Shown here piece after piece: positions 17,832 to 48,726 of a DNA stretch of 64,000 nt. Within the stretch, counting starts at the first letter, position 1, and every line of letters begins with the position of its first letter. The DNA comes from Deuterostichococcus epilithicus. Taxonomy: Eukaryota > Chlorophyta > Trebouxiophyceae > Prasiolales > Stichococcaceae. A program made the position numbers and the translations under genes. The stretch covers positions 124,001-188,000 of the forward strand of contig JAVTLE010000019.1 in the NCBI GenBank assembly GCA_033439295.1, given 5' to 3'. The notes beneath the pieces are model-generated. The model searched no databases. It saw nothing but the letters and a program-made list of their open reading frames with translations, and had not been told where the DNA came from.

Positions 17832-20800
17832 ATGGCGGCTGCTACCGAGAAGGAAGAGGTTGAGGAACTAGATCGGGTCCTCACCCGGCTCGCTCTCACC
17901 GAGGACACCAACCTACAGAAGGCGAGCGCCGGCTTGCTGATGAGTAGTGATGCAAGAATGCCATGCAGCCTGCATTCATGTATATAACGCTCGTCGACTT
18001 ACTTGCGCTGTGGCATTTCAGGGTGCTGCATGCCGCAGTATGCATCTGCAGTGTTAGAGGGACCGCGCTGTGATGGTTGACTGACGAATACAACGCAAAC
18101 GAATCTTTATGTGTGTATCGTCATGGGGAGCATACTATTTCCGCGGAAAATATGCCAACTAAGAGGCTGCGAGCCTGCAACCTACCGCAGGTGCTGGCGC
18201 GGCTGCTGCCGCTGGCGCTGGAGCGGCTTGGGTCCCCGCACCAGGCGTCCCGCACCAAGGTGGGCCTCGCAGCGCCTCTCACGGCAGGCACAGGTCGCCG
18301 GGGTCGCTGCGCCGCAAGCAGCTTGCATCCCTGCTCAGCGAGATTCCGACGCCTGCGCGGCCGCCGGGTCTCGCTCCGGCAGGGTCTGAAGGCTGTTGCT
18401 TGAGCCGCCATGCCCCAGTCGCCACACCCTCCATGCCCTGCGAATGGTGTGTCCACTGGACTGTGCGGGCGAAAGCTTTCCGATGCGTCCCCAATCTCAA
18501 CGCACAGGTGCTGGAGATGCTGTCGCACATCAACAAGCGGGTCAAGGACCAGCGGGCGATCGGCCTGCCGTTGGGCGAGCTGCTCGCCCTGTACCAGAAG
18601 CCGGGTGCGGCGCCCATGGTGCGCAACTTTGCGCTGGTGTACGTGGAGATGGCGGCGGCGCGGGCCACCCCAGAGCAGCGCCTGAGCGTGGTGCGGCCCC
18701 CTCTGTTGCATGCAATGACAGCCAGGCATCCATGTATTCGGAGAATCATCGGGGTGGCATGGGCCACTGCAGAGCAGCTACAGGCCGTGGTGCGCCTCAA
18801 CCCCCACTTAGGATTCCTGGAATTCCGCCTCAGCTTCATGGCAACTTTGCGGACAATCCACAAACAGTGCATATCTGGGGTGCGCCCCACTCCCTCAAAT
18901 TGAAGGCATGCTGCCAAGGCCGTGTGCTGGTTTTGCATCCGTGGGGACAGCGATGGCCACCCTGGAGCAGTGGGTGGCTGCTGCGGTGCGCTGCCAGCCG
19001 CAGCGCATCCTCATCAGAGTTTGCTGCTCAAGCTCGGGTGTCATCCCGTAGTTTTGTCAACTGAGCAGGCCATCCCAAACTATGTAACCATCTTGGGGTG
19101 CTGTGCACTAGGGCATGGCCGTGCGGGTCTGCAGGCAGCAGACAATCTGGCCAATGTCAGGACCGCGAACCCGCTATTGCCAAGTTGCGCTGTGTGTTGG
19201 CTTCTCAGTGCCATGCCCTGCAAGCTATGCTGTGACTGCCACTGCTAAGCAGACCATGCGCACTTGGTAGCTTGCGTCAGGGAATCGTTCGGTCTCAAGG
19301 TTGGTGCCAGGCTTGACGAGTGAAGTGCGCTGCGCAACTGTGCGCATGCCTGTTCAATCTCCTCTTCCTCCCGGTCTCATTTCACTAAGTGATCCCAGCG
19401 GACGCGCTGGAAAGGCCTCGTCCATTTGCGGCAGGTGCCGCAGCTGCTGGCGGGCGTGGCGGCGAAGCCGGCGCAGCAGCGCGACATGCTGCTGCGGCTG
19501 GCCTTCAGCGGCCTGGCGCCGCTGGGCGGGGCCCAGGCGCCGCGGGCCGGCGGCCTGGACGAGGAGGCGGCTTTCGCAGCGAGTTATGGGTTTCTGGAGA
19601 GCGCCGCGGACCGGGCAGCGTTCCTGGACTTTGGGCTGAAGCTGCTGCTCTACAGCCCGCCACTCAGCGTGCTGATGCAGGTGTGACATTCTGTCAGGCT
19701 GAACATGCGAGGCCTGATGTGTCTCTGCTTTTGTGTGGGCTCCGCCACGAGCTGGGCTGCTGAGCTTGGTGCACAGACGTGGGCCACACAGCTTGCAGAT
19801 GCCAACATCACATGCGGCATGCAGGGTTCCAGACCCGCGACTGACGTTGGTATGTGTCATGCTCAGGGTGGGGCATTGCGGGGGGCGGCCCCGCCAATTC
19901 CGCAGCCGCAGGGCGCGCCTGGAGGGGCGCCGCCGCCGGCTGCGAAAGTGGCGCCGCCGGGGCTATCGCTGGCGGACCTGCCCCGCATCGAGGGCAAATC
20001 GGCACCATCAGGCAAGGTCCTCGAGATAGATCTACACTAACCTCAGAGACAGTCGTGTGGCCTGAAACAGCGGTGCTGCCGAGGCTGCTGCTAGCGGTGC
20101 TCTGGCGCATCAAGAGCAGATCGGTGTGGATGGGACAGCAGCTCGGCCGTTTATGAAATGTCAGGGCAACATCGTGGCATGTTCGAATCGCACATCCACC
20201 TCGGCTGCACTGATTTCAGCAAAGTTTGCTGCAAGCCTGGAACATTGCGGCTCAGCAACGCAGTCATTGATAGCAGCCTCTAGTCGGGCGAGTCCGAGAT
20301 GGCTGGCCTCGTTTGACATGCCTCTGCCCGCCGCAACACCCACGGTTGAGGGTAGATGTCCAGCTGCAGCCAGGTTCAACCCATGCCAGACCGTGTCGGT
20401 CAGGGCCTGGCTGTGTACAGCTGACCGCAGCTGACATCGTACTCCTCGGTGAGTGTTGCGGGCTGAGCAGGGCAGAAGCATGTTGTATGTTTTGCACATG
20501 CTCAGCTTGTGTGTGCCCCAGGTGAGCCAGCAGACTTCGCCGCCGCCAGCGGCAATTGGCAAATCTCCTGTAGCACCTCGTGACATAACCTGACAGTCAG
20601 GCAGCCTGCACTTGCCTGTCATCGCAGGCGAGCAGCTGACGGCGCAGCGGCTGGCGCTGCTCAACTTCAGCGCTGCCGCCGGCGTGGCGCCGGCCGAGGT
20701 GCTGCTGCACTACCTGGTCGCCGCCGTGGATTCTGCAGACGCCCAGGGACGCGTGGCGGCGCGCGGCGAGTCGCTGCTGCGCAAGCGCTGCGGGGTGGAC

Positions 20801-23800
20801 TCCAGCAAGCCCGCCGTCGACCTCGAGGATGCCACGCTGGTGAGTTGAAAACACATTCTAGTTAGCTGCTTTGGCGCACAAGAATGCAGAATATGCAGAA
20901 TGCAAATCATAAGTGGCGGGCAGCAAGGAGCTGCTGCGATATCGCTGCGGGGTGGGACTACATGATGTAGACAGGGCTGGCTCATGCCATCGACCTGCGC
21001 TCTCTTTGCGCCGGCAGCTTTGTGCATCTATTGAGCGGCTGGCCATAGGGCAGAGCTGAGGGTGCACGGGTGCCGTGGCTGTGGCAACCTGTTCACCCTC
21101 CGCATGTATATGCCGTGGTGCACCCAGCTTGTGCTGCCACTGCGCTCATCGTCCTCGGCTCTGCCCCGACCATCCATTCAAGTGCGTTGCGTCTCACTCA
21201 AGGCAGCTCAGTTGGAGGGAGATAATGCCGTCTGCCCTGGCAGGGCTGGATAGGTGGACCCGGTGGTGCAACTCATGCCGAGCTGGCAGAAAGCGCTCGA
21301 TCCCCAAACCCTCTGGCTAACCTTGCAGAGTGGCCCATCTGCATACCAAAATGGCAGTGGGGCCACGTGCTGCATCGATTCACGCAGCGGCCACAGAGTT
21401 CAGAAGCAGCAGCTGGTGCTCGTTGCCGGCTGGTGCAGTGCACATGCTGCCGACAATTGTGCGACGAAGTGTCAGCTGGCGACTGGTCACCTATTCTTCC
21501 CCATCTGGCTGGCAGTTTAAAGGAGGATCTGATCCTTTGAGAACCTCATGCGCTCAGGTGAAGAAGTTGTTCGGGCTGTTTCTGGGTAGCGGCACCCCCG
21601 GGGCGGCAGCAACAGATTCCACGGTTGCGGCCGCGGGGCCGGCGCTGCAGGCGCGGCTCATGGGACTCTTCACACGCAGCCTGGCCGCCGCCAACTCCTT
21701 CCCACAGACGCTGCAGGTCCGCGCTTCTGATTTCCGGTGCAGTTGAACCTAGGCTCATAGACACATTCGAAGATTGCCGCTACTGCAGCGGGCGCTCCAC
21801 GTCTGGTCCGCCTGCAGCGCTCCCAACGCTTGGCGGCGCTGCGCCGATGCTGCCCTCACGGCCTGTGAACTATGCCCTGCATACGTATCATGGGCCTTGG
21901 ATGCGATACCACTCTGCAACATGAAATGTGCAGCGCAAAAGCTGTGTGCTGCCTCAAACCCTGTGCGTAAGCCAATATCCCGTGCAAGCCGTGTCCTCAC
22001 GTCTCTCCCCTTTTATGTGCAGGTCATCTTCACTTGCGTCTACGGCGCGGGAACCACGCTGCGGCTCAAGCAGGCGGGCATGGAGTTTGCGGTGTGGGTG
22101 TTCAAACACGCGAGCGACGCACAGCTGGCGCCCATGGCGCCCGCTGTGCTGCAGGGCCTCCTGCGCCTGCTGGACTCGGGTGATTCTCCACTCTCTACGT
22201 CTTTACATCCTGTTCCTGTACTTTCGGGGGTTGCTGCCGGGGATGATGTCGCATGGAAGCTGAGCACCGCAGGCGCTGCAAGCCTAGCACCGGGTGCTAC
22301 CCCGACTGACTGTGCATGTTGACCAGGTTTGGGATGCGCAATGCGAACTTTGCACACATGTCAGATGGCTTCACAGGCTGTTGCTGCAGCTGCTGTGGAT
22401 ATCGAAAAGTTGAGGATGCCCAACAGCTGGTTGCTGTAAAGCCGGCACCATGCATGCCTGCAAGAGGAATGTTGATGCAGAGTGTAAGCAGCACTCTGGT
22501 CGCCTCGTCATCGCCTTCTGCCCATGCGTCTGGCAGTATGCACGCTCACAAGTCGCGCATCGCATGTCGAGGTGTCGGACAGCCTGAAACACTTCTGCCT
22601 TTTCTGTTCTGCCTACCCTCCAGGATGGGCCAGAGGGGTTTAGCCTGTCCGACATCCTGCAGAGCCGCCCTTGCAGTCTGTGCGTCAACAAGTACTGCAA
22701 GTCGGCCTCCGTCATCACATGTATCCTGCCTGCAACGCCGCAGAGCCCCCCGGCGATGTGGCGGGGCGCGGATTGCGGTCCTTCACCTACCAGGCGGTCG
22801 GCCAGCTGGCGGCTCGGGCGCCACAGCTGTTTGCGTCCGACGTCGCCATCGCCGCCCGCTTCTTCCAGGCGCTCGTCAGCGAGCCGCCGGGCGTGCGCGC
22901 GGCGGTGCAAGAGGCTGTAGGATCGCTGGCGGCGGCATACCGCGGCTGCGCCGGTGAGGACAATCCCAGTCTGTTCCATGGGTTTGAACTCCTTTGTCCC
23001 TACAGTCTGGTTTTCTCTGTCAAACGAACTTGGTTGAATAGCTCTCACATGAAATTAGCACCCAGGGATCCTGCACAACATCTAACAGTGACTGCCGTAT
23101 CTGAAGGCAATTCCACCGACGTGTCGACGCGCTGCTGTTGGACAGCATTGGAGCGCTGTACAGGGGGCGGCGCCTAACGCGAAGCAAATGGAACTAGTCT
23201 TGAAAACGGGTCCTGGTGACGCAACGACAGGCTGATGCTGCGTCCCTAAACCCTGAACCTAAATCCACAGGCGAAGACGCCGCCCGCATCGAGGCGTTGC
23301 TGCTGGACAGCATCGGGGCGGCCGAGGAGGGCCGCCGCCTGGCGGCTGCGCAGTGGGCGCTGCGCCTTTTCGGCTTTGCCCACGTGCCGGCGCGCTATGT
23401 GTGCGTGCTGGCGGCCGGCGATGGGAAGCTGGAAGTACGTGAGGCGGGCGCCGGCGGCCTGAAGCCGCCCAAGGCCGCTGCGGGAGGTGCGGCGCATTAG
23501 ATCCGAGAACGCTCCTTTGACTGGATCTCTGGGCCCTGAGCACAATGCTTGCTTGTGCAGGCTGGCCAATGGGCGGACACACGAGTGGGACTTGCTTGAC
23601 TGCTGGTGCCAGCGCACAAATCTAGGAAGCTTGTCAGCCTCTGCTTCCCCTTGCCTGAGCCCGTTTTACAGCTGGGTTGCAAGTGCTGTGCAATGGCATG
23701 TCCCCAGGTGCATCCCTGGACGCGGCGGCGGTGGCGACGGCGGCGGTGAATGCCCACTACCCTGCGGCCGCCGACGTCATCGCGTACTTCCGCGGGCGCC

Positions 23801-26800
23801 ACCCGAAGCTGGCCGGCGGCGCCGAGGCGGGGGAGGCCCTGGCGCTGCCGCCGGGCGCCTTTGCGGCGCTGATCGCCTTCCTGCGCACCTGCCGGAAGGA
23901 GGCGGCGGCGGGGCAGCAGGAAGCAGAAGACCTGGCGGCATATGCAGGTGTGGCACCTGACGTATCAAGCCTTAAAAGCAAGGCCCTGTTGCTGTGCAAG
24001 GCTCGTTGGGTGCGGATTTTGGTAATTGCACAGTCCACATGCGATAAGGTCTCGTGCAGACCACAGGCGTGCTGCATTGGTTTCGTGGCCTGCGCCTTAC
24101 TTGTCTAGCAGGTGTGTTGGATCATGCGACTGTCGCAACACATGGCATGTGGCAGTGCACGGTGCAGCGCGGTGATGCTGTGGCAACACCCTTTCCGTCG
24201 ATGACTCCGTTTTACTGCTGCATGTTTGGCGCCGTCTGCCATTTCGTATGCTCTCGACAATTCCGCGACAGCATCCTTTATCACTTTGCTGTGTGCCACG
24301 GCATACACGCCTCCAGCGAGCGCTTTTCACAATCTCATTCTGATGTAGGCCTAGGGGACCGCCAGCTGCAGCGCCGGCGTCAAATCGCACATCAGCGTGA
24401 TTTGACGTCTGCACTGGATTTTGTGGCGCTCGAGGATCGCCTGCAAGGATCCCCTGCGAGCAGCTGCGGCGCCCTGCCTTACATGCCTTCGCTGGCCTCA
24501 GGTCAACCCACCCTGTACTGCAGGCCTGCTGGAGCATGCCCTGGTGCGGGACTCGACGCCGGCGCTGCAGCTGGCGGCGCTGGAGGCTCTCCTGGAGGTG
24601 GCGAGCGGCGCGCCGGACGCTTTTGCGGAGCGCTATGCCCCGCGGCTGCCCTGGCTGCGCGCCTACCTGTCGCACACCGACGCCGCTGGTGTGGAGCTGA
24701 TTCTTTTGAATCTTACCGCATGTTCCTCGCAAGACCTATGTGTCATGGCTGCGTCGGGTTGACGCCTGCGGGTGGGCTCCTGCCTGTGGCGCTCTGCAGG
24801 ATGCTGTGTGGCTGCAACAATGTGAAAGGCTCTTAAACTGCCCGTTGAACACCATCCTCCCATTCACCACAGACACCCACGCGACTCCCAGAGGATGGTG
24901 TCGAGCCAGGCACTGAGAATGACTCTGCTCTGCACTTGCTGACGTGCAGCACGAGAGGCAGCGGCCAAGCTGTGCGGCGTTGCGAGCGCGGGACAGCCCA
25001 GCACCTCGGCTGCGGCTCTGTTGGCGGAGCTGGCGGCAGCGCTGGCGCCGCCGGCTGGTGGCCGGGACGGCGCCAAGAAAGCCGGGAAATTCGAGGAGCG
25101 GGACGGCGCCACGGCGGCAGTTGGCTACGTGTTGGCGCAGTCGATGACTGGTGAGGGTTTCGGTTTGAAACTGCCCCGCAATATTCTGGTTGTTGCAGGC
25201 AGCTCTTTTTGGGGCACAGCCACGAGGCGAATACGGATCGGGGAACTGGGAGATGCCATGCGACGCTGTTCTCGTTGTTCTTCACTTCAGTATGAGCATC
25301 GTTTCGACCGTTGTATTCTTCAACCTTTTTCCGTCTGGGTAGATTGCACCTAGCAGTGCACATTCCGTACGCAGTTGTGTGGCTGAATGTGAATTCAATT
25401 CAAAGCATTTTTTATACGCCCACAGCACAAGACATTATTCAGGGCAGCGTTGCCGCTGCGCAGCACGCTCCTTTCCCATTGAGACGGCTATGCTTTGGAG
25501 TCTTGCATGCATCACAAACCTACAGAGCTCAAGCGTCAGCACAGTCCACTTCGGTTCTCATTGTTGATTGCGCAGAATTGGGCTGCAAGGCTCGAGGTGT
25601 TGTCTCTGTCAAGGAGAGGCGCTGCCTGTCCTTAGAGATGATTGCCCTCAGCCTTTCAGTTGCTGGAAGCCCTTCAATGCTGGGAACGCTGTGCCAGGTG
25701 CTTCTGGGTGCACCTCCTCGTCGGCGCACACCTAAGTTGACGAGGATCGCACACGTTGCTGCCGGGTGCCGTCTTGCCGTGGTGGTTCTGTCACCATGAC
25801 ATCGTGGCTCTGCACCGCTGACTCTGCACGGCACCGGCTGCGCCATGCAGGCCGACCGCACGTCGGTGCCGACAGCCAGACCGCTGCCGCGGCGGAGCTG
25901 CATGCTGCGCTGGCAGATTCGGACACGCAGCTGGCGGCGGCCGCGGCCGCGGCCCTGGGGCACGCCGCTCTGAGGTGCATTCCCTTTCGTTGTTCACTAG
26001 GCCGATTGGATGAAGCATCACTTGCGAGGTGACCTGCCATCTGAGCAGGCTGGCACAATGGACGCGAAACGTGTGTTTACTTGTGCAGGGGCGCGCTGCC
26101 GCTGCCAGGGGGTGCACCGTCGCCGCCCGATGCCGCCGCAGGCAGCGCTGCGGGAACAGCGGCCACTGCCGCAGCACCCGCCGCCGCTGCGCCGGTCGCT
26201 GCCGGCACGCCGGCGGGCGATGCGACATGCGCGCAGCCCGCCGCAGACGGCGCAACGGCGATGGATTCCGACGCGCTGGACGTCGGCGCTGCAGCCAGCG
26301 CCACGGTGGGCGGCAGTGCCTCAGCGGAAGCAGGAAGCACAGTCCAGGCCACGCGGTGGAGCGTTCTGGAGCGCATCATTGGCCTGACCAAGGACCGCGA
26401 CAACAAGGTGACCATGCAGAGCAGCTCCTCAACGGTGCACCGTGATCCAGCAGCTGCCATAATGGCTTCATGCCTGCTGCCCTGCATGGCTCTTGGCAGC
26501 CCCTCTGACAAGTGGCACCTCAGTGAGGCGCCGGTAGTAGCCCTGCTGCCTGCACACTCCCCCAAACCCTGAGACATGTCCTGCTCGGGAGCAAAATGGA
26601 ACAGAACCGTTCACGAGCGACAGCGATCACGGTTTCAGGTGGTGCTGCGTGCCGTGGCGGCCGTCGGGCACCTGGCGTCCACCGCTGGCGACACGCCGCA
26701 GCTGGGCGCGGCGGTGGACGGCTTGTTTGCTCTGTCAGGCAACAAGGCTGAGGAGGTGCAATTCGCCGTTGGCGAGGCGCTGTGCTTCGTGTTCGGAGGT

Positions 26801-29800
26801 GAGCCGCCTGAGCGCCGAAACTTGAAGGAAGAGCAACTGTTCACACACCTTCACGGTGTGAATTCTGCAGCGCTGTGCTCCTTTCTCGGAGGTCAGCTGA
26901 CACCAGACGCCCCGTGGGCTGCTGCACAACAGCGACGCCAAATGCGGCCCTGATGCACGGGCCTGATGCACTCCACGAATGCGCAAAATGCTGCGAAACG
27001 ACGGTACCAGGTGCGCTGCGAACTGTTGCAGATGGCAAACAGCTTGCCAGCGGCGGTGGGGCACGAGTTCCACCACCAGCGCTAGACCCAAGGGAAACCC
27101 TGTGAACCTGAGCGGCAGGCTCTCGTGGTTTTGCTATTGCTGCGATGCGTACCCATGCCAGCCATGGTGCTACCAGATCACATCTCAGGCATCTGCAGAC
27201 CTCACTTGGCGTTGAGGCAGCTAATTCGTATGGAAAGGCCTCAAATTTGGGGCGCTTGACCTCTCGGTGCAGATAGTGCGGGATGGCAGCCATAGGCTGC
27301 AGTCACAGTCATCGGCTGCTGGCACGAGATCTGTGGCCTGCGGCGCTCACTGCCACCTCTCCGCATCCTCCTTTGCAGTGGCCATCTGTCATGCACTAGG
27401 GGGTCACACGCTGACTGCGATGGTTTCGAAGGCCTTGCAAACCTCAGTAGCAATGGCTCACGGCAGTGTGCCTGTGCATTCATTCGTTGCAGGCGTACCG
27501 GTGTCAGCGGACACGATTTTGCGTAGCACCTACCGTGGGCTGGCCGCCTGGCTCACCGCCGCGGGCGGCGCCGCCACCACCGCCATCGCAGCGCCCGACG
27601 GGCCCGCCGCCGACGGCCCGGCGCCGATGGCGGAGGGTGATGCGGAAGCAGGAAGTGGCGGAAGCGGCGTGACCCGGCAGGGCGCCCCCGAGGCGGGCGG
27701 CAGGGCGGCGGCCCGGGAGCAGATCATGACCAAGATCATGGACGAGCTGATTTTCCACCCCCGCACAGAGGTCCGTGCCGGGACGGATCTAAACACGGAG
27801 CTTTCACAGCGTGTCCCATGGAACGCACTGGCCGCCTCATTGACGGTTGCTGTTCGTCGTCGGATCTGCTCAACAGCCTCTGCAGACTGCAGCATGCACC
27901 GCGCCCATGGGCAGGGCCCCGTGCCTCCACGAGCACATCCTCTCCGAGGATCCTTCTACGAGAACTCGGCTGGAGCAGACTTGCCTGCAATGCCATTTCC
28001 ATAGACCGTGCACGCCCGGGGTGCAGGTGCGCTGCGGCGGCTGCATCGCGCTGCTGTCGCTGGTGAGCTACACAGGGCGCAATACCGCGCTACTGCCCCG
28101 CCTGCCGGCCATCCAGGTACGTCTGCAAGTCGCAAATGTGCTACGGCACTGGTGCGGAGGATTGTACACGAGAAGCATTCGAGAAGCGGCTGCGCGCGCC
28201 GAGTCACCAGAAACCATCTGCCGCCTCACCTGCGCGCAGGAGGCGTTCTCAGGGCTGCTGGGCGACGCGAACGAGCTGACGCAGGAGATGGCCAGCCGCG
28301 GCATCAGCGTCGTCTACTCCCTGAGCGACGCCGCCGCCCGCAAGCAGCTGCTGGACGGCCTTGTCGGCACGCTGCAGGGTGACAGCTGGTCCTGCAACAT
28401 ATTTTCCCAACCTGTCTAACGATCTGGCTGGCGCCTCTGTGGTCTCAGATGGGGGTGCGTGTGACAGCATCATGCAATGACCATGCGCAGGGTACTGCGG
28501 TGCTCTGCCAGATGCTCGTGGTTGCTGGTCAACCGTGAAGTATGAACACATTTGGCCGGGGATGCTCAGTCGTGTTTGCATTGCCTGTCGGCGTGACTGC
28601 TGGCCAGTCTCCTCTTCGGCTTTGTCCGCAGCAGCGCCACAACTAGTTTATTGCATTCGCTGGCGACACCCAGCGCTGTATTGTCCGAGGTTCAGCTGTC
28701 TCGCCAATGCCACTGGCCGCATGCAAGCGTTTGCTGTGGTGCAGCTGCAGTTGGGTTGCGGCAGTGGCGTTGAGCGCCCGGTCTAGGATGATACGTCAGA
28801 AAAACGAGGTCGATAGCATCTGCCCTTACAGTGATCAGAATTTCATGTCTGCAGTGCGAACGCGGCAGCAGTCCTGTCAACAGGAGGCTCGACAGATTCG
28901 CTCAGACGATCTGTGCCTGACGTGGTGCCCATGACTACAGCCCGAAATTTCGATCAAAGTAACCCAGCACATCAAAGGTTTCACCCCCTTTGACCAGGCG
29001 GCCCGCGCAAGCGGCGGGCGGTCAAGCTGGAGGGCGACAGCCGCGTGTTTGCAGAAGGGGCACTGCCCAGCGCGCCGGGCGGCGGCGGCCTCACCACGTA
29101 CCGCGAGCTGTGCGGTGCGGCACGGAAACACCACCTTCCACGGCGTGGCGGACGTCCTTTTTGTTCATGTCTGCCGCCTGCATCGTGTATCCTTGGCATG
29201 TGCAGCCTACAAGCGCTCGTTACGGTCCTTGTATTTAGCGTGACACAACTCTTCATGTTCGGAAGATGGTGTCAGGGCAGCTGTGAAGCAGTCGATTTGA
29301 ATCCTCCAAAGCTAGCCGACCTGGGGCAGCCCGAGTCGACGTACTGCTATGTGGCCGTCAGGACTGTCATTTGATGCAAACACTTTCTGGGTTGCGGAAC
29401 TGGCCAAAGGCCTACCGCTCCAGGGACCTGCCTGACTCCCTGAATGTTGGGTTTGGGGCGGCAACTTCAGAGCGGTAGGCCTTTGGCCTGGAAGCTCTGA
29501 GCTGTCAGTTTCATACGAGTACATACATCTAAGGTCACCATGCAAATGCGATCATGAGCCACACCAATCTCCAATCTTGAACATACACATCAGGCCTGGC
29601 CAACGACCTGGGGCAGCCGGATCTGGTGTACCGCTTCATGGACCTGGCCAACCATGCGGCGAGCCTCAACTCCTCCCGCGGCGCGGCGTTCGGTTTCGCC
29701 GGCATCGCCAAGCTGGCGGGCGAGCAGCTGGCACCCTACGTCGCCTCCATGGTGCCAAAGCTGTACAGGTGTGTGCGGTTTGATTCTCCCAACACTCCTC

Positions 29801-32800
29801 TCAGCGCTTGGACAAGCTCTTGGCGAGCAGCTGGCGTCCTCGCATCGCGTCCACGGCGCCCAGGCCGTGCAGCTGCTGCCCTGCGTTCCTCTATGGTGCC
29901 AATCCCTCCGCGCCAGCATTCTTTCGTTGTTTGCACTCTGCACGTCTCCTTGTCCAGCAGCTGGCACCCTGCGTCGCCGCCAGAGTACCCGAGCTGTACA
30001 GGGTGTGGGGATCCCACAGCGTTGCAATTCCTGACGAGTCAGGGTGCTGTCACCCTGCAGTTCCAGGCGGCATGAAGCAGCTGGGACGTCAGCGTCGCCA
30101 TCCCAGTGCTGATCTCGCGCCCGGGAGTGCTCGCCATCGCAATGCTGACCCTGCGCCCACGGGCCCACCACGTCACGGCCAGCTTGTGCAGATGCACACG
30201 CTGCTCAAGGAGGCGGCGGCTGTGTGCCGCATGCTCCTTGTAGGAGTTCATGTTCTGCAGACGGTGGCTGCCTGCACGGTGCTGCGCCTGCAGCCCTGGT
30301 CGGCACTTTGTCGAAGCGTCCGAGCAGTCGAAAAACGCCCTATATGCGGGGTTTTTTTTGGGGGTTTGTTCATCCCTAGGATCCTGCACTCATCAGCCCT
30401 ACTCAAACTTACTACTGCAGGAACCATTTCGACCTCAGTGTAGGCCCCCGCAGGCGCGAAGCAAATGGCGGCAGGCGCTGGTCCCCGAGCGGCGCGTGGT
30501 AACTGCAAATAAATCCCACGGTCTTGGAAACCTTGATCGCAGATACCAGTGCAACTCCAACCCACAGACGCGCGAGACAATGGCGGCCATCTGGCGGGCG
30601 CTGGTCCAAGAGCCGCGCATGGCAATTGCAATTTGAACTTCACGATATCAGATAACCCATATGCAGGTATCAGTACGATCCCAACCCACGGGTGCGCGAG
30701 GCGATGGCGGCCATCTGGCGGGCGCTGGTCCCGGAGCCGCGCGCGGCAGTCGAGGCGCACTGGGACGCGATCGCGGGCGAGCTGCTGGGCGAGGTCGGCG
30801 GCCGGCTGTGGCGCAACCGCGAGGCGGCCTGCCTCGGTCTCGCAGACCTGCTGCAGGTGCGGGATTCGACAGACTTTACAACATTCTCAAGTGGTTTTTG
30901 TCATCTGTTCTGCGGGCGATTCCGATCAGCCGAGCCAGCCGCCTCCACCTGCCACCTGTTCCTGGGGTGTGCGCAAGGCGAGCCCCTCAGAACGGACGGC
31001 AGCCTGATGACAGCGGAGCAGGCGAGTCGGCGCCGCGGCGCACCAGCGTTGGCAGTGCCATGCTTGCACGGCCCTCACAGTGCGGCTCGGCAGGCCGTCA
31101 GTGCACCCTGCACGGCAGACGTCGGGCGGCGCTTCTGCCCCCCATCTTCTTGTTGGATTCGGGTGCACTTCTTGTCCGGCCAGCTGGTACTGTGAGGGTC
31201 TGCATTGTCCAGCACGCCTCAATCGATGCCCGCACGGCAGCGACCTGAAGACGCTGACACCTGCCGGCCGCAAACAGCTCAGCATGGCTTGTGTGCCTCA
31301 GACAGTCACAGTCTGGCATGCTGCCACCTAGGTAGGGCAAGTGCAGCAGACCTGCCGCAGCGGCATCCGCAGGGGCATGCCAGTTGAGTGTCATGCCGCA
31401 GCACCCAGGCGCAATGCACGCCAGGCGTCGCTGCGCATGCCGCACGCTGTCAAGTCTTGCAGTGAGACGCCGCTGCCGCAGTCTGGACTGCCACAGGCAC
31501 ACGGGAGTCGCAGCAGTCATGAGGGAGTGATGCCTTGAGCACTGTGGTCGTTGGCCGATACCAGACTTTCATTTTCCGCACGACATCCTGACGTGCTATG
31601 TATGCGACGCTGCTTTCAACAACAGCCCCGCATACCCTGACGTTGGTGTGCACACTCGCACTCTGCCGCTGCAAGCCGGCTGTGCGCGGGCGCTTCGAGG
31701 ATGTTTGGACAGTGCGCTGTCAGCACCCTCATTGGATGATCAAGCTTTTCTCGCGCAGGGCCGCCCCTGGTAGGACGTGCGTTGTGACGAAATTGGACCG
31801 TGATGCTGCGCTGTACCGCGGCTCACGCTGAACGCACACACAAACGCTAAAGACGCATGAACCCTGCTGAAGCTTGCAGACTGCACACTGCACACAAGGG
31901 CGCCGCTGGCCGGCCGGCCGTGGCCGCTGCGACAGGATGTGGGCCGTGGCGCCACGCACGCCCGCCGCTGGCCAACGATGCACATTCGCTGGAGCCACGC
32001 ACAGTCTGTCGCAAACTTGTCGCTCAGGGCCGCTGCCGGCCACATGTGCGGGGGCGCTGCCACGAGACGCGGACAACGACCGCCGGCGCACACCTTCTGT
32101 AAGAACGGAAACTCTGCGTTAACAGGGCCGGCGATGGCCGGACGTACGGGGCCGCTTCGACGAGATGTGGACCATGGCGCTGCGGGCCCTGGACGACATC
32201 AAGGAGTCCGTCCGCGCGGCGGCGGTTACACTGGCGCGCGCTCTGCGGAGTCTGACGCTGCGGGTGACGGACCGGGGACAGGCTGGCGAGGCCGACGCCG
32301 CGGCGGCCGTCGCCGCAGCGCTGCCGCTGCTGCTAGAAAAGGGTGAGGTTTCGAAGTTCTGTCTGTGGAGAGGGGGCCTCGCTGCCGCTGCTGCTGGAGA
32401 AGGGTTAGCTCCTATTCTGCTGCATGTTTTGCTTTTGGTTTCGCTGGTGAGTCCGACAACGAGGCTTCAGGGCAGGGAGGAGCCCGGCCCGTGTCCTGGA
32501 ATGTGTGTGGTAAAGTGCTGGTTGTCGCCCCGCGGTGCAGGCCGCAGCACTTTCCTGTAGTTGCCCCGAAGGGCAACCATCAACCTAGCTGCAACTGGTA
32601 GAAAACTGAGAATGGCACAGGGACACTCGACCGCAGCGGTACTGTTGCTGTGCGTCGTCGCTGCCACTGCGGGTAGCTGCCTGGGAATGACGCGGCAGTG
32701 GCCAGCATTTGTATGACGATCTCGATGCTCATTGCTGGTGCTGGAAGCGGCCAGCGCAGCAGGACTCAACCAGTAGTAGCTCCGGCCGTTGACGGGCTGC

Positions 32801-35800
32801 GGCTGGTACTGAAATACTCCGTCTGCGCTGGTCGTCCTCATGAGCGGCCTCAGTATGCGGACACTGATTGGAGGCGTCCGCTGGGGCTGAAGGTCGCTAG
32901 AGTTTCCAGAGTGTTGTAGCTGCAAACGTCATACAGTCGGCACATCACTGCTTGACACACACCAGGCCCGGCCGTGGCGGTCTCACATGGCTGGGGTGTG
33001 TCCATGTAGCAGAAGGTTGTCCGGGCGCCTGCGCGGCCTGCGACTCCAATTAACAGTGCACTTCTATGCGTCTTCAACCCGAGGAACGCTCCGTTGCAGG
33101 CACGGGCGTACTCAGAGGTGCCTGGCCTGGTGGTGGGCACGCAGCCAGGGTGGACGCCAGGCCAGAGCTGCTGCACTTTCAGATCCTGAGCATGAAAGGG
33201 CAACACAAACCTCTGTTGGAACCTCCGCTGGGATGGGCAGCAGGGTGACGGAGGTGGCGGGCCCGGCAGTGGACACCATCGCTGCGATTGGCGCTGGGTC
33301 AGCACTGTGACAAACAGGATCACTATGCAGTGTACAGACAGGACAATGCGACGGTATAACATTCGCCACCATCATCTTGCGTAGGCATGGGCAGCGCAGT
33401 GCCGGAGGTGGCGGGCCTGGCAGTGGACACCATCGCCAAGATGGTGACGGCTGCGGGGCCGGGACCAGTGCGGCCACACCTGCCGCTACTGGTCGGCTCG
33501 CTGCTGGAGTCGCTGTCAACGCTGGAGGTGAGGTCTGCAACTCTTCCAAACCCTGGAAATGAGTTTTAATGCTCTGCTATGTGGTACGTGGGTGACAATG
33601 CGCATCGGGATGGGCGCACCTGCCGCCGCTGGTCGGCTCGATGGGTCAGAGAAGACCTGAGCAAGTCTCCAACAAGAGCGTCGTCCCACATGCACACGGG
33701 CATGCCAGGATGCAGATGCAGTTTCATGTTGGCTCAGGGCAACGCTGCCGTTTCCGTCCTCTTCAAGACATGCAGGCTGTTCATGTCGCGGAAGGTCCCA
33801 ACTGCCTGCCAACACGGCCAAGCACTTTCCTCTATGCAGCTGTGCATTGGCTGCTGGCCTCCCTGGCCCGGAAGCTTACTCGTGTCGTCAGGCTCGTTGA
33901 AGCAGGAGTAAGCAGCCGGGCCTTTGAATGCCGGCATCGCGTGCACAGCTGCTGCCGGTTGCACTGGCATCTCGCATGAAGCATGTGGTTTCATACTTAG
34001 GACTCGTAGGTGACACAACTTTGAGCAGATTGTGTCGGCTGGAGATAGCTCTGAATAGGGTTTTGAGTTCAATGACAACCCACAATCAAGCTCCGAATCC
34101 CTTAGCAACTGCAGGACTTGCAGCTGAGCCACCTGGAGCAGCATGCGCAGCACCTCGCGCTAGACAACACCCAGTTGGGCGCCCTTGCAGGCCTCAAATG
34201 GTGTCGACAGGCCAGTCGAACAAATATCTGTGTCCTCGCCTGAACACACAGGACTCACGGCTGAACTACCTGGAACAGCATGCGGAGCGGCTGGGGCTCG
34301 ACAACGCCCGGCTGGAGGGCGCGCGTTTCTCTGCCGCCAAGGCCAGCCCCATGGGCGACGCCCTGGACGCTGCCGGGCGCTACGTGGACCAGGCCTCTCT
34401 GGGTGAGTGTCGTCGCAGCAGGTTGCTGAGCTGCTGAGCTCTACTTTGCCAGCGCAACCGCTCGAAGATCTGCAGACAGCTTTGCGCCAGCCGAGCAGCG
34501 GCATGCTGTGACTCGTGAGGGCTCAGCAAAGCCGTGTGCAGAGTTGTGAGCGGTTGCCCTGGCAGTGAGCCACCTCATGACGCTCTAGGCATGTTGGTCG
34601 CCAGCTCGGGGGGTTCCCGGCACCAGTCGGGGGTGATTTTGTCTGTGTCCGGCGGCAGCAATGCAAGCTGGGACCCCGCAGCTGCGAACCAAGCGAAGTT
34701 GTCCCACTCTCTGTCCCGCTGTATGCTACACGCCGACAAGCTTGATGTGCCGCGTGTTGGGCCTGTCAGTGCCTGCAACAGAGGGCGCTGGGTGCCGACA
34801 TTTCCGCCTTGATCTGGCCGCCTGCAGAGGCGCTGGTGCCGCGGCTGGGCAACATCGTGCGGCGCGGCGTGGGCGTTAACACACGCGTCGGCGCAGCACG
34901 CTTCATCTCGGGGCTGGCGCTGCGCATGGGGCCCGACATACGGCCCTCGTCGGGCGCCCTGATCAAGGTGCAGCCCCCATATTGACACGCAGCTGAGATG
35001 AGACGCCTCTGGACACCGGCAAGTGTCAAGGGGCGTGGACAGCGGCAGCAAGTACCTCCGCTAAGTTGTTGCGTTTGCTGAGCCTCATATCGCTAGCGCT
35101 GCACACCACAGCATGCCGGCATGGAAACCATCATTGTGTTCTACAGCACTCCGCGGGCTGCAGAGCACCCATCCCAACCTGCCCCTGGTCTTCTGCCATG
35201 CTTGGGGCAGTGTGCCTGGGCATCTCTCTGCAACGCAATACACGTGGCGATCGAAAAGCCGGAGATCGGCTGCTGCCAGCCCGGATCCGCACACGGTGCA
35301 GACAGCAAGGAACTCTCAACCCTTAAACGTGCCAGCCCAGAAGCCGGCCCGCCGTCGGCCTGCAACCTCCGACGCCCAAGCTCCTGAGCACTGGATCCCT
35401 GCATGCAACAGAAACTTGATACCACCGGCCCCCTGCATACAACAGGCTCTGGTGGGCGCCGCCCGCACCGAGCGCAGCGGCACCGCACAGCGCGCCTTCG
35501 CCGCCGCCGCCGCTGCCGTCGCCCGCCATGCGCCCGACGCCCGCGTGGAGAAGCTGCTGGCGGAGGCGGCCGCAATGCACGGCGACCCGGGGGACCGGCC
35601 TGCCCGGCAGCTGGCGGGCCTGCTGTGCAGGGAGACCGCGCGCAACGCCGCGGACGCCTTTGCCAAGCACGCTGCCCAGGTACTTGCACTGTGCCAGCCG
35701 TTTGTGCCTGCGAACTCTGACGTCGACCCTGAAGGTGAGGACCCTGACGCGGGAGAGAGGTGTGGCGCATGCCGGCCCGTTCACCTGCAGTCTTCTGTTG

Positions 35801-38800
35801 TGGGAGCCACGCAGCAACGGCCTGCGTGCAGCGTGCAGTTGCACTTCGTCGCCGGCGCTAAGACATTGCCCACTGCCGAAGTGGTGCTGCTGCTACTGCG
35901 AAGCAGGGCGAGGGCAGGCCTCGTCCTGGGCATCGCCGAGGGTGCCATACCTCGAACGACCACCCTTGCCCGCAGGTGCTGCCGCTGGCCTTTGTGGCAA
36001 AGCAGGACGAGGAGATGGATGTGGCGGAGCTGTGGGGCGAGGTGTGGGAGGAGGCCACCAGCGGCGCGGCCTCGGCGCTGCGGCTGTACATCGCAGACAT
36101 CGTGCCGCTCATCACTTCCGGTGCGCTGTGCCCCTGGCGTGTGAGGCCCGGTCTGCACCTTGCGTCATGCAGGGTTTCACGACGCCTAGCGCCACCCGGC
36201 TGGCGGCGCAGCCCCCTGCTTCCGGCTGCCGCACCAAGGGGCGCCGCTCATCTCCCGGGCTGGCCCGTGAGCCGGCATCCGGATATCGTGCCTGGCATGC
36301 CACCACGAACGAAAGACAGCCAGGCGGCGTGCGAGGGTCGATGCAACGGCTTGCTGTGGGGAATGCCGGACCATCACCGGAGAATGCCGGACCGTGTCCG
36401 TCGGTGACACGCCTCGTCGCCGCCGTGTGGCCGCAGGGCTGGCCAGCCAGCAGTGGGGCCGGAAGCGGTGTGCGGCGCTGGCCGCGGCCGCGGCGGCAGA
36501 GGCAGCGCCGGACGCCGTGGGACCACATGCGCAGAAGCTGGCCGGCGCGCTGCAGGTGGGCGTGATCGCACACGCTTCTTCCACACACGTGTCCCACATA
36601 TACCTGTCTTGCTGGCATGGTGGAAGGTGAGGAAGCGGCGGCGGCTGCGGCGGCGACTGCGTCGGGTGCGCCGCGTCGCTCGCACAGAGCCACACACGCT
36701 AAGGCAGCAGCTGACGCACCGCGCCGACCGCACAATCCGGGCACACGACCTGGTTTGCAGAGGCCATGCCGGCCTGCGATCGCGCCGTGCGCACCCGGCA
36801 GGCAGCGCCGGAGCGTGAGACGGCAAGGAGGCTGTTTCCTGAGGGCGCTGGCGGCGCTTGCTCAGGTGCCAGCAGCGTTCAGAACCCAGAACAACCGGAA
36901 GGGTGGTGACCTGAACATCGGCTTCGAAGATCGAGAAACCCTAAACTCTAGACATCGTGCCAGGCGGAGCTCCCCGGGCGGCTATGGGACGGAAAGGAGG
37001 CGGTGCCGGCGGCGCTGGCTGCACTCGTGGCGGCATGCCCTGCCGCGCTTGGCGAGCCCGGCGGCGCGGCGGCGGTGGCGGCCCTGGTGGAGGCAATCGG
37101 TGAGCGGTTCTACTCATCGTATCTTCTGGACTGATGGATGAGAAACCCTTCTGACAGCCGTGCTCCCGCTGCCCTCCGCGAGCCCGGCGGCGCGGCCCCA
37201 GTCGGGGCCCAGGTCGCGGCGGTCAGTGAGTGCATTGTGTGACAGACTCGTGTGGAGTTCCCGTGCCAGAGCTGTCGGGACATGCTGCGCGAGCGTGGAG
37301 CTGCTGCAGTGGCCTGCGGCGCCCCTGGCCTGCTGAGGTGGCCGGGCCACACATCGCTGCTGCTGCCTCTTGCGTGAGGCGCTGCTGCAGTCCATGCGGT
37401 TCCTGATGTTCCCAGCGTGCACTTCGATGGTCCGCACGCACAGCGCATGTTTTTCACGCAGGTAGTATCGGGCAGGACAGGGTGCTGCACCTGTTTCAGT
37501 AGTCATGCATGGAGAAGGCTGCAGCCATGCGGTGCTGCATGTCGCATTTGGCCTGGCCGAGCTACAGGGTACGTGGCCAGCGTGCAGTGTGCCAGGTGGA
37601 GTCAGGAACCTGGCTCCGCACCGCTGCTTCAGGCCTTGCTTGCCGGCTCGGTGCCCTCGCCCTGCCAGACTGCGCGTGCAGCACTTGCATGTTCTGAACT
37701 GCACCATCGACATGATGTCGCAAGGTTGTGACTGCCCATTCCTGTTCGTTCAGATTGCATTTGGCCGTGCGGCCGCGCAGATTGCAGCTCGTGGCTTCGT
37801 GGGCTAGACTTTCCGAGGAAATGGCGCCATTGCGTTGGCGATGGAGAGCCTTTGGCAGCCGCTTTGGATGGTTGCTTTTCGAGCCAGTCACCTGCTTTGA
37901 GCAGCGTCGCTGCAAGTTCAGGACACGGTGGCACGATCTGGGATTCAAACTGGAACCCTTGGTTCTGCAGCAGTGCACACAGCGCTGGGCCCGCGGATGC
38001 CTGAGAAGGCCGGAAGCTTCTTCCAATGGTTGCCAGACCGTCCAAGCAACCTGATGAGACACCCGCACGCCCTGTGCGTGCAGGGCGCAAAAAGGCGGAC
38101 TTCCGAAAGGCGGCGCTCGAGGCGCTCCGCAAGACGCTGGCCGCCCTCCCGGCGCAGGACCACTTCGCGGCCGCGGCGCCGCCGCTGCTGGCGGCGCNGG
38201 CGGCGCATGCCGAGGTGCAGGCCGCCGTGCTCGCGGGCACCGCGCCGCCGGTGCGGCGCCTCCGCATGACTGGGAGCACCCGGGCCCCGAGTTGTCCGGA
38301 GCTGCCTGGCGCAGTGCTGCACCAGCGGATTCAAAGACCCGATGCAGCGGTCGGTCTGCCGCATCCAGCGGCGATGGGAAGGCTGGGCGGCTGCACACGC
38401 AGCACTCGTGCAAGCACAGCATGACAGCCGCTGCACTCGGCTCATTCGTTTCACTCGTGCCTGACATCGTCCAGACGGCCGGGAGGTTCTGCTCGACCCT
38501 GTACTGGAGGCTCGGCCCCGCAGGTCCAGGATTGTAATAGAGCTGCTACTGCAACAGTCGCTCAGGTAGCTTTTGACCGTGCTGCAGGCGCCGGCCGACG
38601 GCGACGCAGCGCTGGCTGAGGCGCCGACACCGCTGCCGGCGCTGGAGGCCGTGGCCGCGCTCGGCGCCGCATGGGCGGGGCGGGCGCGGCGACTGCCGAG
38701 GCGCGCGGCGGCGACGTGGCGGACGCGCTGGCGGCGGCGCTGCTGCCGGGTGATTGGCGGGCGCCCTTGCTTGCTGACAGGCTGTTTGAAGGCTCTGAAC

Positions 38801-39840
38801 CTGTGCAGCAGCGCTGCTGGCCTTTACATGAGGGCGTGCGGGGCGTTTCTGCACCACCCGCGCTTTGGGTGCTGTGCCAGCAGGTTGTGTCAGCCGCTCT
38901 CGCGAGGTTCTGTCCTTGGCCCAAGCCTGGTTCGCTCTCCTGTTCCCAGGACACTCGTGGGCGACACGGGTGGAGGCGCTGGGCGTCGCCAAGGCGTATT
39001 TGCTGAAGCTGAGCCGCCTGAATGCTGGAACGGATACTGCCGCCGGCGCAGCGGCACATGGGGCTTCGCCCCCGCAGCTGACGGCGCAGCAGCTGCCCTG
39101 GGCTGCCAAGCTGGTGCCGGGTGAGTGGGAGCCCGGAATGTCGAGCTGAACCGTACTTGGCCAGACTTAAGTACCGGTTGACGCTGGGCTTATGCGTCAG
39201 GTGACATGCATCCCTGCCGGCTGGCGCAGCTGCTCTGCCGCAGATCCAACTGGTGTCGCTCATCTGCTTTCTGAACTGTGGCCTCGCAGACTGACTTGCA
39301 AAATCACAGCAAATCCGCGCCCCACATCGCAGGCATCCTGGCCGGCACTGAGGAGGCAAAGGTCTCTGCTGTGCGCGCCGCGGCGCTGACAACGCTGCAG
39401 ACGCTGGTCGAGCGCGCGGGTGGCGGCGCCGCGCTGCCGACGGCGCTCGCGGCGAACGTCCGCGGTCGGCTGGGGGCACTGGTGGCCAGTGAACGTAATT
39501 CGGCCATCACAGCGCAGGTCAGTTTTGTTGCAGCGGTGGCACGCATGCTGTGTTGGAAGGTGTGTGGTGGGCCGGCGTGTCGTGTGTGGGTTGAATGTGG
39601 CCAAGATGGCTCGCTGGTAGCGCCTGGTTGTGCAAAGCCACCGTCGCAGTTCCCAGTGGCAAGTGCTCCTGAGCTTCAGCGCCTGTGAATGCTGAGGTGC
39701 GTGCATGCCTGCAAGCCTGCGACAGGCTGGTCCTAGGTACCTGGTTCATATCGTCTGCAGAAGTTGAGGTGCTGTGATGATGGGTGCAGGCTGCAGCATT
39801 GCTGGCGGCCATGCCGGCGAAGATGGAAGAGGGGAGTTGA
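17832..39840 (+). CDS. ECM29: ECM29 proteasome adaptor/scaffold (HEAT-repeat protein)
   Basis: ECM29 tethers 19S to 20S proteasome particles and couples them to vesicles and motors. Exons: 17832-17921, 18191-18259, 18508-18690, 19435-19680, 19867-19993, 20628-20839, 21558-21716, 22023-22179, 22744-22953, 23271-23486, 23708-23947, 24524-24688, 24950-25150, 25851-25974, 26089-26407, 26639-26798, 27493-27770, 28027-28116, 28240-28378, 28998-29114, 29594-29768, 30667-30856, 32126-32342, 33385-33527, 34252-34402, 34828-34967, 35446-35679, 35976-36120, 36437-36555, 36964-37099, 38084-38250, 38588-38749, 38950-39120, 39333-39517, 39790-39840. About 1,960 aa (human about 1,845). Family blocks in order: [85 protein letters not shown]-type segment, [44 protein letters not shown]. 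All phases agree except for one missing base near 38672-38692. Introns 1 and 5 begin GC. One N at 38198. Confidence 0.95.
18759..18995 (+). repeat. Two decayed copies of the 3' edge of ECM29 exon 3
   Basis: The exon 3 end GGGCCACCCCAGAGCAGC plus its donor GTGCGG is echoed at 18759-18797 (GGGCCACTGCAGAGCAGC, then GTGGTGCGC) and more weakly at 18949-18995 (GATGGCCACCCTGGAGCAG, then GCGGTGCGC). Both lie in intron 3. Confidence 0.65.
20915..20972 (+). repeat. Decayed copy of ECM29 exon 6 in intron 6
   Basis: Reads GAGCTGCTGCGATATCGCTG then CGGGGTGG, matching exon 6 GAGTCGCTGCTGCGCAAGCG then CTGCGGGGTGG (about 20767-20820). The copy has indels and an in-frame stop. Confidence 0.6.
23126..23180 (+). 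repeat. Decayed copy of ECM29 exon 10 in the preceding intron
   Basis: CGCTGCTGTTGGACAGCATT followed by GGAGCG and GGGCGGCGCC echoes exon 10 TTGCTGCTGGACAGCATCGG followed by GGCGG and GGCCGCCGCC (23294-23340). Confidence 0.65.
23244..23266. repeat. Degenerate telomere-type tract at the 3' end of an ECM29 intron
   Basis: CCCTAAACCCTGAACCTAAA, three degenerate CCCTAAA units, ending 4 nt before the acceptor of exon 10 (exon starts 23271). Confidence 0.8.
29311..29356 (+). repeat. Decayed copy of the 5' edge of ECM29 exon 21
   Basis: CTAGCCGACCTGGGGCAGCC then CGAGTCGACGTACTGC echoes exon 21 CTGGCCAACGACCTGGGGCA then GCCGGATCTGGTGTACCGC (from 29596). Confidence 0.65.
29821..30008 (+). repeat. 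Two decayed copies of the 3' edge of ECM29 exon 21
   Basis: The exon end GGCGAGCAGCTGGCACCCTA, continuing to CTGTACAG/GTGTG, recurs at 29821-29880 (GGCGAGCAGCTGGCGTCCTC) and at 29955-30008 (CAGCAGCTGGCACCCTGCGT to GAGCTGTACAG/GGTGTG). The second copy keeps the donor context. Confidence 0.75.
30451..30622 (+). repeat. Two copies of ECM29 exon 22 in the preceding intron
   Basis: Exon 22 has GCGATGGCGGCCATCTGGCG then GGCGCTGGTCCCGGAGCCGC. A near-perfect copy at 30540-30622 starts at its own acceptor-like AG, with ATGGCGGCCATCTGGCGGGC then GCTGGTCCAAGAGCCGCGC. An older copy at 30451-30500 has ATGGCGGCAGGCGCTGGTCC then CCGAGCGGCGCG. Confidence 0.85.
31682..31720 (+). repeat. Decayed copy of the 5' part of ECM29 exon 23
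   Basis: GTGCGCGGGCGCTTCGAGGA then TGTTTGGACAGTGCGCTG echoes exon 23 GTACGGGGCCGCTTCGACGA then GATGTGGACCATGGCGCTG (about 32143-32183). Confidence 0.65.
32376..32408 (+). repeat. Decayed copy of the 3' edge of ECM29 exon 23 with mutated donor
   Basis: CTCGCTGCCGCTGCTGCTGG then AGAAGGGTTAG repeats the exon end GCGCTGCCGCTGCTGCTAGA then AAAGGGTGAG. The copy directly follows the real donor by about 35 nt. Confidence 0.75.
33231..33300 (+). repeat. Decayed copy of ECM29 exon 24 upstream of the exon
   Basis: GATGGGCAGCAGGGTGACGG then AGGTGGCGGGCCCGGCAGTG and GACACCATCGCTGCGAT matches exon 24 (33386-33455) with GGAGGTGGCGGGCCTGGCAG and TGGACACCATCGCCAAGAT. A copy of the exon's 3' part lies at 33608-33645. 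Confidence 0.8.
34109..34185 (+). repeat. Decayed copy of ECM29 exon 25 upstream of the exon
   Basis: Starts GCAGGACTTGCAGCTGAGCC, then ACCTGGAGCAGCATGCGCAG and CTAGACAACACCCAG. The real exon (34252 on) has CAGGACTCACGGCTGAACTA, then CCTGGAACAGCATGCGGAGC and CTCGACAACGCCCGG. The acceptor CAG/GACT is conserved in the copy. Confidence 0.8.
36936..36950. repeat. Short telomere-like tract near an ECM29 acceptor
   Basis: AAACCCTAAACTCTA, about two units, 13 nt before the acceptor of exon 30 (exon starts 36964). Confidence 0.6.
37160..37231 (+). repeat. Decayed copy of the 3' part of ECM29 exon 30
   Basis: GCTGCCCTCCGCGAGCCCGG then CGGCGCGGCCCCAGTCGGGG and GCGGTCAGTGAG echo the exon end CGCGCTTGGCGAGCCCGGCG then GCGCGGCGGCGGTGGC and CAATCGGTGAG (37045-37105). 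Confidence 0.65.

Positions 39841-48691: not shown

Positions 48692-48726
<35 letters not shown>

What the first reader, a model, noticed from the sequence alone, without database searches (positions are those of the whole stretch)
17832..39840. Introns of ECM29 are full of decayed copies of the neighbouring exon edges
At least ten exon edges in this gene have one to three diverged copies in the flanking intron (near exons 3, 6, 10, 21 at both ends, 22, 23 at both ends, 24, 25, 30), several keeping an acceptor or donor. Graded divergence implies repeated, ongoing events. This is what intron gain or growth by local tandem genomic duplication, a published hypothesis, would leave behind, but I know of no case this dense. 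It would also explain why the gene spans 22 kb.
Basis: partly seen in the sequence, partly recalled or inferred. Interest (0 to 1): 0.85.

Follow-up and report, generated by a model that had tools for sequence, protein, structure and literature searches.

The report
Decayed exon-edge copies in algal introns
In this algal genome a number of introns contain worn copies of the edge of the neighbouring exon, most likely left by old local duplications across splice junctions that made the introns longer, and they occur in several genes rather than only in ECM29.

Summary
In a curated ECM29 model, 11 of 68 exon edges have a copy in the adjoining intron, where 0.3 are expected. It is not confined to ECM29: 26 of 759 edges in other genes sampled from the same genome have one (1.0 expected), although ECM29 is about five times denser. 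Copies are mostly direct, lie 97-161 nt from the junction in 18 of 21 junction-reaching pairs, sometimes form arrays, and mutate nearly without regard to codon position: untranslated debris. Introns with copies are longer (median 453 against 246 nt).

Local duplication across an existing splice junction, hence intron growth, is the best explanation; classical intron gain is not shown. "Ongoing" is not supported: 1 of 30 longer copies is at least 90% identical, where steady production predicts 29%.

One feature stays odd. In 16 of 21 pairs the intron half of the supposed tandem unit is unrecognisable. Plain tandem duplication with equal decay fails; it fits this measure if introns diverge about 2.5 times faster than exon-derived copies, which I could not measure independently. 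The alternative is a copying process bounded by exons. No RNA data or relatives were available.

The parts
17832..39840 (+). ECM29-like proteasome adaptor gene, 35-exon model (about 5.9 kb exon, 16.2 kb intron)
   Evidence: self-trained HMM, curated frames, Pfam ECM29_N and HEAT_ECM29
18748..18789 (+). copy of exon 3 3' end, d=99, id 0.71 over 42 (weak)
   Evidence: score 18
20915..20962 (+). copy of exon 6 3' end region, d=157, id 0.81 over 47, 35 nt short of the junction
   Evidence: score 26
23124..23175 (+). copy of exon 10 5' start region, d=165, id 0.73 over 52, 18 nt from the junction
   Evidence: score 24
24395..24443 (+). copy of exon 12 5' start region, d=151, id 0.71 over 49, 22 nt from the junction
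   Evidence: score 21
29317..29348 (+). copy of exon 21 5' start region, d=287, id 0.78 over 32 (weak)
   Evidence: score 18
29821..29872 (+). nearest copy of exon 21 3' end, more decayed (coordinates approximate)
   Evidence: multiple alignment
29956..30001 (+). second copy of exon 21 3' end, d=233, id 0.85 over 46; a third lies near 30076
   Evidence: score 32
30470..30499 (+). outer copy of exon 22 5' start, d=247, second unit of the array
30544..30624 (+). copy of exon 22 5' start with its intron part still alignable: a clean junction-spanning tandem duplication, d=123-124, id 0.83 over 81
   Evidence: score 53; z 3.9
31898..31952 (+). outer copy of exon 23 5' start, d=228, id 0.78 over 55
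   Evidence: score 31
32025..32074 (+). inner copy of exon 23 5' start, d=98, id 0.74 over 50
32380..32403 (+). copy of exon 23 3' end, d=61, id 0.92 over 24
   Evidence: score 20
33233..33282 (+). copy of exon 24 5' start, d=154, id 0.90 over 50; intron part not alignable
   Evidence: score 40; z 1.2
33612..33643 (+). copy of exon 24 3' end region, d=140, id 0.84 over 32, 24 nt from the junction
   Evidence: score 22
34115..34178 (+). copy of exon 25 5' start with CAG kept, d=137, id 0.77 over 64
   Evidence: score 34
37165..37220 (+). copy of exon 30 3' end, d=126, id 0.77 over 56
   Evidence: score 30

Best explanation
Junction-spanning local tandem duplications lengthened existing introns. 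A unit of about 100-160 nt containing an intron end plus 30-95 nt of exon was duplicated in direct orientation. Splicing kept using the copy that joins the rest of the exon, so the other exon edge was left inside the intron and decayed neutrally. Some were duplicated again into arrays. Most detectable events date from an earlier period (copy divergence about 0.2). The exon-derived part stays visible because its partner in the mRNA is conserved; the intron-derived part is nearly erased because both of its copies drift and intron sequence turns over about 2.5 times faster. SHOWN: copies, orientation, spacing, near-neutral decay, lack of young ones, longer introns, a few clean units. INFERRED: tandem duplication as the event for the majority, the faster intron turnover, and which splice sites are used.
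For: Direct:inverted 71:2. In 21 junction-reaching pairs d is 97-161 for 18 and 233-254 for 3; I read the longer values as two-unit arrays, because intermediate copies are seen for two of them, L008 7474/7367/7253 and ECM29 exon 21, and weakly for L010 (E 0.013). 5 of 21 pairs have an alignable intron part (z>2), among them exon 22 and L008 4698. Substitution rates by codon position 0.192, 0.189, 0.267 over 37 pairs: copies are not coding-constrained. AG kept in 7 of 15 acceptor copies. Simulated junction-spanning duplication gives 71-85% of matches within 4 nt of the junction; observed 24 of 36. With copy divergence 0.15-0.35 and introns diverging 2.5 times faster, simulation gives mean z 1.22 and 26% of pairs with z>2 (observed 1.10 and 24%; P=0.36) and 24% of pairs with identity >=0.85 (observed 24%). 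Junction-spanning tandem duplication is documented in potato (PMC4974935; abstract, outline and Results section read).
Against: With equal decay rates and the indel rate seen in the copies, the model predicts mean z 3.6-6.6 for the intron part against 1.10 observed (no draw of 2000-4000 as low), so it needs the extra rate factor, which I did not measure independently; at a factor of 2 it is still too high (1.98, P=0.013). The factor of 2.5 then predicts almost no intron-intron pairs (ratio 97:1), whereas 36:7 were seen; the seven may be younger duplications. 11 of 36 copies lie more than 15 nt from the junction, against 3-7% simulated. No relative shows the state before an event. Young copies are missing, so no event is caught fresh.
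Confidence: 0.5

Rival explanations
1. Exon-bounded local copying: a repair or template-switching process copies only the exon edge (with about 5 nt of intron) and pastes it about 35-100 nt into the adjoining intron, so that homology truly ends at the splice junction.
For: Ungapped identity falls from 0.78 (exon 0-9 nt) to 0.46 (-10..-1) and 0.31 (-20..-11) across 21 pairs. The spacer resembles the outer flank at p<0.05 in only 1 of 21 pairs and the exon interior in 0 of 21. 16 of 21 pairs have z<2, including five with core identity 0.84-0.90. A first measure over 39 BLAST pairs gave mean z 0.10 on the left and 0.39 on the right, with 0 and 1 above 3.
Against: I know of no mechanism bounded by exons. 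About 14 nt of acceptor are shared in L003 7140, and whole units exist (5 of 21 with z>2). A rate factor of 2.5 makes ordinary duplication fit the intron-part measure. A model that copies random nearby segments fails: 17-37% of matches within 4 nt of the junction, against 24 of 36 observed.
Confidence: 0.27
2. The copies are functional: alternative exons, decoy splice sites or conserved intronic elements.
For: Some copies keep AG (7 of 15); identities cluster rather than spread.
Against: Nearly codon-blind substitutions, 30 indels and 7 stop codons in 37 pairs. The spacing d shows no preference for multiples of three: 14 of 49 hits, where chance gives about 16 (counted).
Confidence: 0.07
3. 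Intron gain by tandem duplication of an exonic AGGT segment (Rogers model): each intron was created by the event.
For: A few short introns begin or end with the copy (window 54447-54526, 45479-45563, 58775-58882, L020 9483-9586).
Against: 25 of 29 acceptor-side and 17 of 20 donor-side copies with score >=17 lie 48 nt or more from the opposite splice site, and spacers do not resemble exon interior (0 of 21).
Confidence: 0.06
4. Exon identity kept by ongoing gene conversion from exon to intronic copy after old tandem duplication.
For: Could explain exon-limited similarity; slight clustering of mismatches (block variance p<0.05 in 5 of 30 pairs against 4% simulated).
Against: Conversion should give many near-identical tracts; the clustering is not significant overall (p=0.07, longest runs p=0.40) and 1 of 30 copies reaches 0.9.
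Confidence: 0.06
5. Chance or compositional similarity between GC-rich exons and introns.
For: Weak hits are common by chance: at score >=16, 65 of 827 edges against about 15 expected.
Against: 37 of 827 edges at score >=20 against 1.3 expected; orientation bias 71:2.
Confidence: 0.01

Closest known systems
Junction-spanning tandem genomic duplication in a potato RdRp gene (Ma et al. 2016, PMC4974935; abstract, outline and Results section read)
   Same: Direct local duplication of intron end plus exon start; the acceptor signals are inherited from the parental intron.
   Different: There a new intron and exon arose, the two copies differ at ten nucleotides and one such event is described. Here the copies stay inside the old intron, are about 20% diverged, occur at dozens of edges and mostly lack a recognisable intron half.
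[quoted passage not shown] reviewed in PMC3443670, passages read)
   Same: Intronic sequence derived from neighbouring exon.
   Different: No new intron is needed here; most copies are not next to the opposite splice site and the spacer does not resemble exon interior.
Staggered double-strand-break repair in new Daphnia introns (PMC4202315, passages read)
   Same: Direct repeats in and at the ends of introns; passive increase of intron length.
   Different: The exon-edge repeats there are 4-12 bp; here they are mostly 30-95 nt and old.
Introner elements (PMC9860276, start of abstract in the search listing only)
   Same: Genome-wide intron remodelling.
   Different: No shared repeated element was found: apart from copies in the same array, 21 spacers had no match better than E 0.010 in 264 kb, and two spacers matched only themselves in the whole genome.

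Membership tests
Tandem genomic duplication (junction-spanning) | two direct copies close together | tested here: met
   71 direct, 2 inverted within 600 nt, spacing mode 90-150
Tandem genomic duplication (junction-spanning) | the whole unit is repeated, intron part included | tested here: inconclusive
   z>2 in 5 of 21 pairs; equal-rate model rejected, model with introns diverging 2.5 times faster fits this measure
Tandem genomic duplication (junction-spanning) | absent from the ancestral gene | not testable with these tools
   no relatives of this genome are held
Rogers-type intron gain | copy abuts the opposite splice site and intron length equals the unit | tested here: not met
   42 of 49 hits with score >=17 lie 48 nt or more from the opposite splice site; a few short introns are possible exceptions
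Rogers-type intron gain | intron absent from relatives | not testable with these tools
   no relatives held
Functional alternative exons | coding constraint on the copy | tested here: not met
   0.192/0.189/0.267 substitutions at codon positions 1/2/3; 7 stop codons in 37 pairs
Functional alternative exons | spliced into transcripts | not testable with these tools
   no RNA-seq
Introner elements | introns share one repeated sequence across genes | tested here: not met
   21 spacers searched in 264 kb, 2 of them in the whole genome: no shared element; other introns were not searched genome-wide
Spliced-mRNA or cDNA insertion | copy continues into the neighbouring exon | tested here: not met
   outer flank resembles the other exon in 2 of 21 pairs at p<0.05, median p 0.80

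The most novel reading that the evidence does not exclude
A copying process that respects exon borders: exon edges, cut at or within about 5 nt of the splice site, were pasted about 100-160 nt away into the adjoining intron across many genes of this alga, making introns grow from both ends without copying intron sequence.
Probability: 0.27. Interest if true: 0.85.

Novelty: new variant of a known kind. Interest (0 to 1): 0.58.

Why it matters
How introns lengthen is rarely visible, because intron sequence decays. Here about 7% of the introns examined (31 of 449) keep a readable trace of how they grew, with conserved exons as a reference for dating. If ordinary duplication is the cause, this gives a handle on the rate and age of intron growth by local duplication in a compact algal genome. 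If copying is bounded by exons, it points to a link between splicing or transcription and DNA repair that I did not find described in an open-access library (searches).

Tried and rejected
Chance and composition were rejected with shuffles, foreign introns and reverse complements. Copies from spliced mRNA: rejected. Repeated element in the spacers: none found. Random nearby templated insertion: rejected on junction clustering and on the low number of intron-intron pairs. Duplication wholly inside the exon: the spacer does not resemble exon interior. Gene conversion: no significant mosaicism. RNA-guided break repair (PMC11390984, abstract and outline seen) was looked at as a possible route for exon-limited copying and not taken further.

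Plain tandem duplication was first rejected in a simulation with few indels and mostly young ages. I then found that older ages and more indels weaken that rejection, calibrated the indel rate and tested faster intron decay; the final position is the milder one. More than three times the observed indel rate with old ages would also do (P 0.05-0.07).

The first gene-finder training collapsed into intergenic sequence and was redone. A first display of extended alignments aligned many pairs with themselves and was discarded for those.

Full report
WHAT WAS CHECKED. The window lies in a 46.8 Mb genome in 21 contigs, GC about 0.57-0.65 in the pieces read. I used the 64 kb window and 24 stretches of 10 kb from the same genome, 304 kb in all. 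A hidden Markov gene finder trained without labels on 264 kb of this gave 400 introns. For ECM29 I curated 35 exons by frame and splice site; Pfam confirms ECM29_N at 1.1e-107 and HEAT_ECM29 at 6.6e-48. Exons 2-32 read without a stop; exons 33-35 read open only in the frame; exon 1 was not translated, so the borders of exons 1 and 32 are provisional.

In ECM29, 11 of 68 exon edges find a partner in the adjoining intron at score >=20, against 0.30 expected from length-matched foreign introns and 1 with the reverse complement; in other genes 26 of 759, against 1.0 expected and 0 with the reverse complement. A separate test with 80-nt edges gave 32 of 602 edges at score >=30, against 0.10 in shuffles, 0.45 in foreign introns and 1 in reverse complements. 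So ECM29 is a dense case (Fisher p 8e-5, post hoc) of a feature seen in other sampled genes too: 11 of the 24 ten-kilobase stretches have at least one edge at score >=20 and 13 have none. 31 of 449 introns carry a copy at this threshold.

ANATOMY. Over 264 kb there are 71 direct repeats spaced 40-700 nt at E<=0.01 and 2 inverted within 600 nt. By predicted label, 36 are exon-intron, 15 exon-exon, 8 intergenic, 7 intron-intron and 5 exon-intergenic, although introns make up twice as much sequence as exons. Among 21 junction-reaching pairs, d is 97-161 for 18 and 233, 236 and 254 for three; I read the last three as two-unit arrays, because intermediate copies are seen for two and weakly for the third. 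Copies of exon starts lie upstream and copies of exon ends downstream, inside the intron; among hits with score >=17, 42 of 49 lie 48 nt or more from the opposite splice site. Of 15 acceptor copies, 7 keep AG at the exact place; of 6 donor copies, 1 keeps GT. Introns with a copy are longer, median 453 against 246 nt, partly because a copy needs room.

THE COPIES ARE DEBRIS. Over 37 pairs, substitutions fall at 124/645, 121/640 and 170/636 of codon positions 1, 2 and 3, with 30 indels and 7 stop codons. The near-even pattern means that the copies are not under coding constraint; the excess at position 3 fits silent change in the exon (inference).

THEY ARE NOT YOUNG. Of 30 copies at least 35 nt long, 1 is at least 90% identical; a steady supply with neutral decay predicts 29% (p=0.0005). 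The mean identity 0.786 and spread 0.056 resemble a single age near K=0.2. A caveat: near-perfect copies might be called as exons by my gene finder; one candidate is window 54412-54473/54600-54661 (92%).

THE ODD FEATURE. Averaged over 21 pairs, ungapped identity is 0.78 in the first ten exon bases, 0.46 in the last ten intron bases and 0.31 in the ten before. The stretch between copy and exon does not resemble the outer flank (1 of 21 at p<0.05) or the exon interior (0 of 21), and apart from copies in the same array it has no match better than E 0.010 in the sample. A tandem duplication should repeat the intron part too. Using a matched measure, observed mean z is 1.10 with 5 of 21 pairs above 2. 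Simulated duplication with the calibrated indel rate gives 3.6-6.6, and no draw was as low as observed. Letting introns diverge faster than exon copies closes the gap: at a factor of 2 the model gives 1.98 (P=0.013), at 2.5 it gives 1.22 (P=0.36) with 24% of pairs at identity >=0.85, as observed. At 2.5 it also predicts nearly no intron-intron pairs (97:1), fewer than the 36:7 seen, so those seven would have to be younger events. The clustering of matches at the junction (24 of 36 within 4 nt) is roughly what junction-spanning duplication predicts (0.71-0.85), while random templated insertion predicts 0.17-0.37. Against the model, 11 of 36 copies lie more than 15 nt from the junction (simulated 3-7%).

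READING. I prefer old, junction-spanning tandem duplication with fast intron turnover (0.5) over exon-bounded copying (0.27). The first is a documented kind of event: a potato gene shows a tandem duplication across an intron-exon boundary that inherited the acceptor signals (PMC4974935; abstract, outline and Results read). Daphnia introns show direct repeats from staggered breaks, but the exon-edge repeats there are 4-12 bp (PMC4202315, passages). The review of intron-gain mechanisms treats tandem duplication of exonic AGGT segments as a route to new introns (PMC3443670, passages). In what I read of these, none describes genome-wide intron growth by exon-edge copies; my searches for such a report showed none in their listings, in an open-access library only.

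SCALE IN ECM29. Offsets from edge to copy for the 15 edges with score >=18 sum to about 2.4 kb of about 16.2 kb of intron (arithmetic), so visible copies account for about 15% of the intron length; older, unreadable ones may account for more.

The odds did not change.

Noticed in passing
window 24359-24443: In ECM29 intron 11 an inverted copy of part of exon 12 (24541-24577, 86% over 37 nt) sits directly beside a decayed direct copy (24395-24443); together they could form a hairpin, which hints at a template-switch or fold-back event (not folded here).
   Followed up: partly
window 54395-54661: Array on the minus strand with spacings 98 and 188 and identities 79-92%, including a called 80-nt intron that begins and ends with the repeat; a candidate for a more recent intron made by tandem duplication.
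   Followed up: partly
window 45416-45594: Repeat with d=109 at 80% around a called 85-nt intron (45479-45563); may be an exon-start copy that the gene finder took for an exon.
   Followed up: partly
window 16364-16480, 48692-48811, 59115-59150: Repeats of simple-looking sequence matching each other across the window; they look unrelated to the exon-edge copies.
   Followed up: no
L012 6152-8549: Large direct repeats with period near 1.4 kb at about 69% identity, likely a tandem gene or internal repeat.
   Followed up: no
L009 4009-4190, L018 7798-7925, L016 3812-3942: Repeats outside predicted exons (two labelled intergenic, one intronic) with spacings 66-83; L009 and L016 cover nearly the whole unit or more, L018 about 50 of 78 nt. 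These look like ordinary short tandem duplications.
   Followed up: partly
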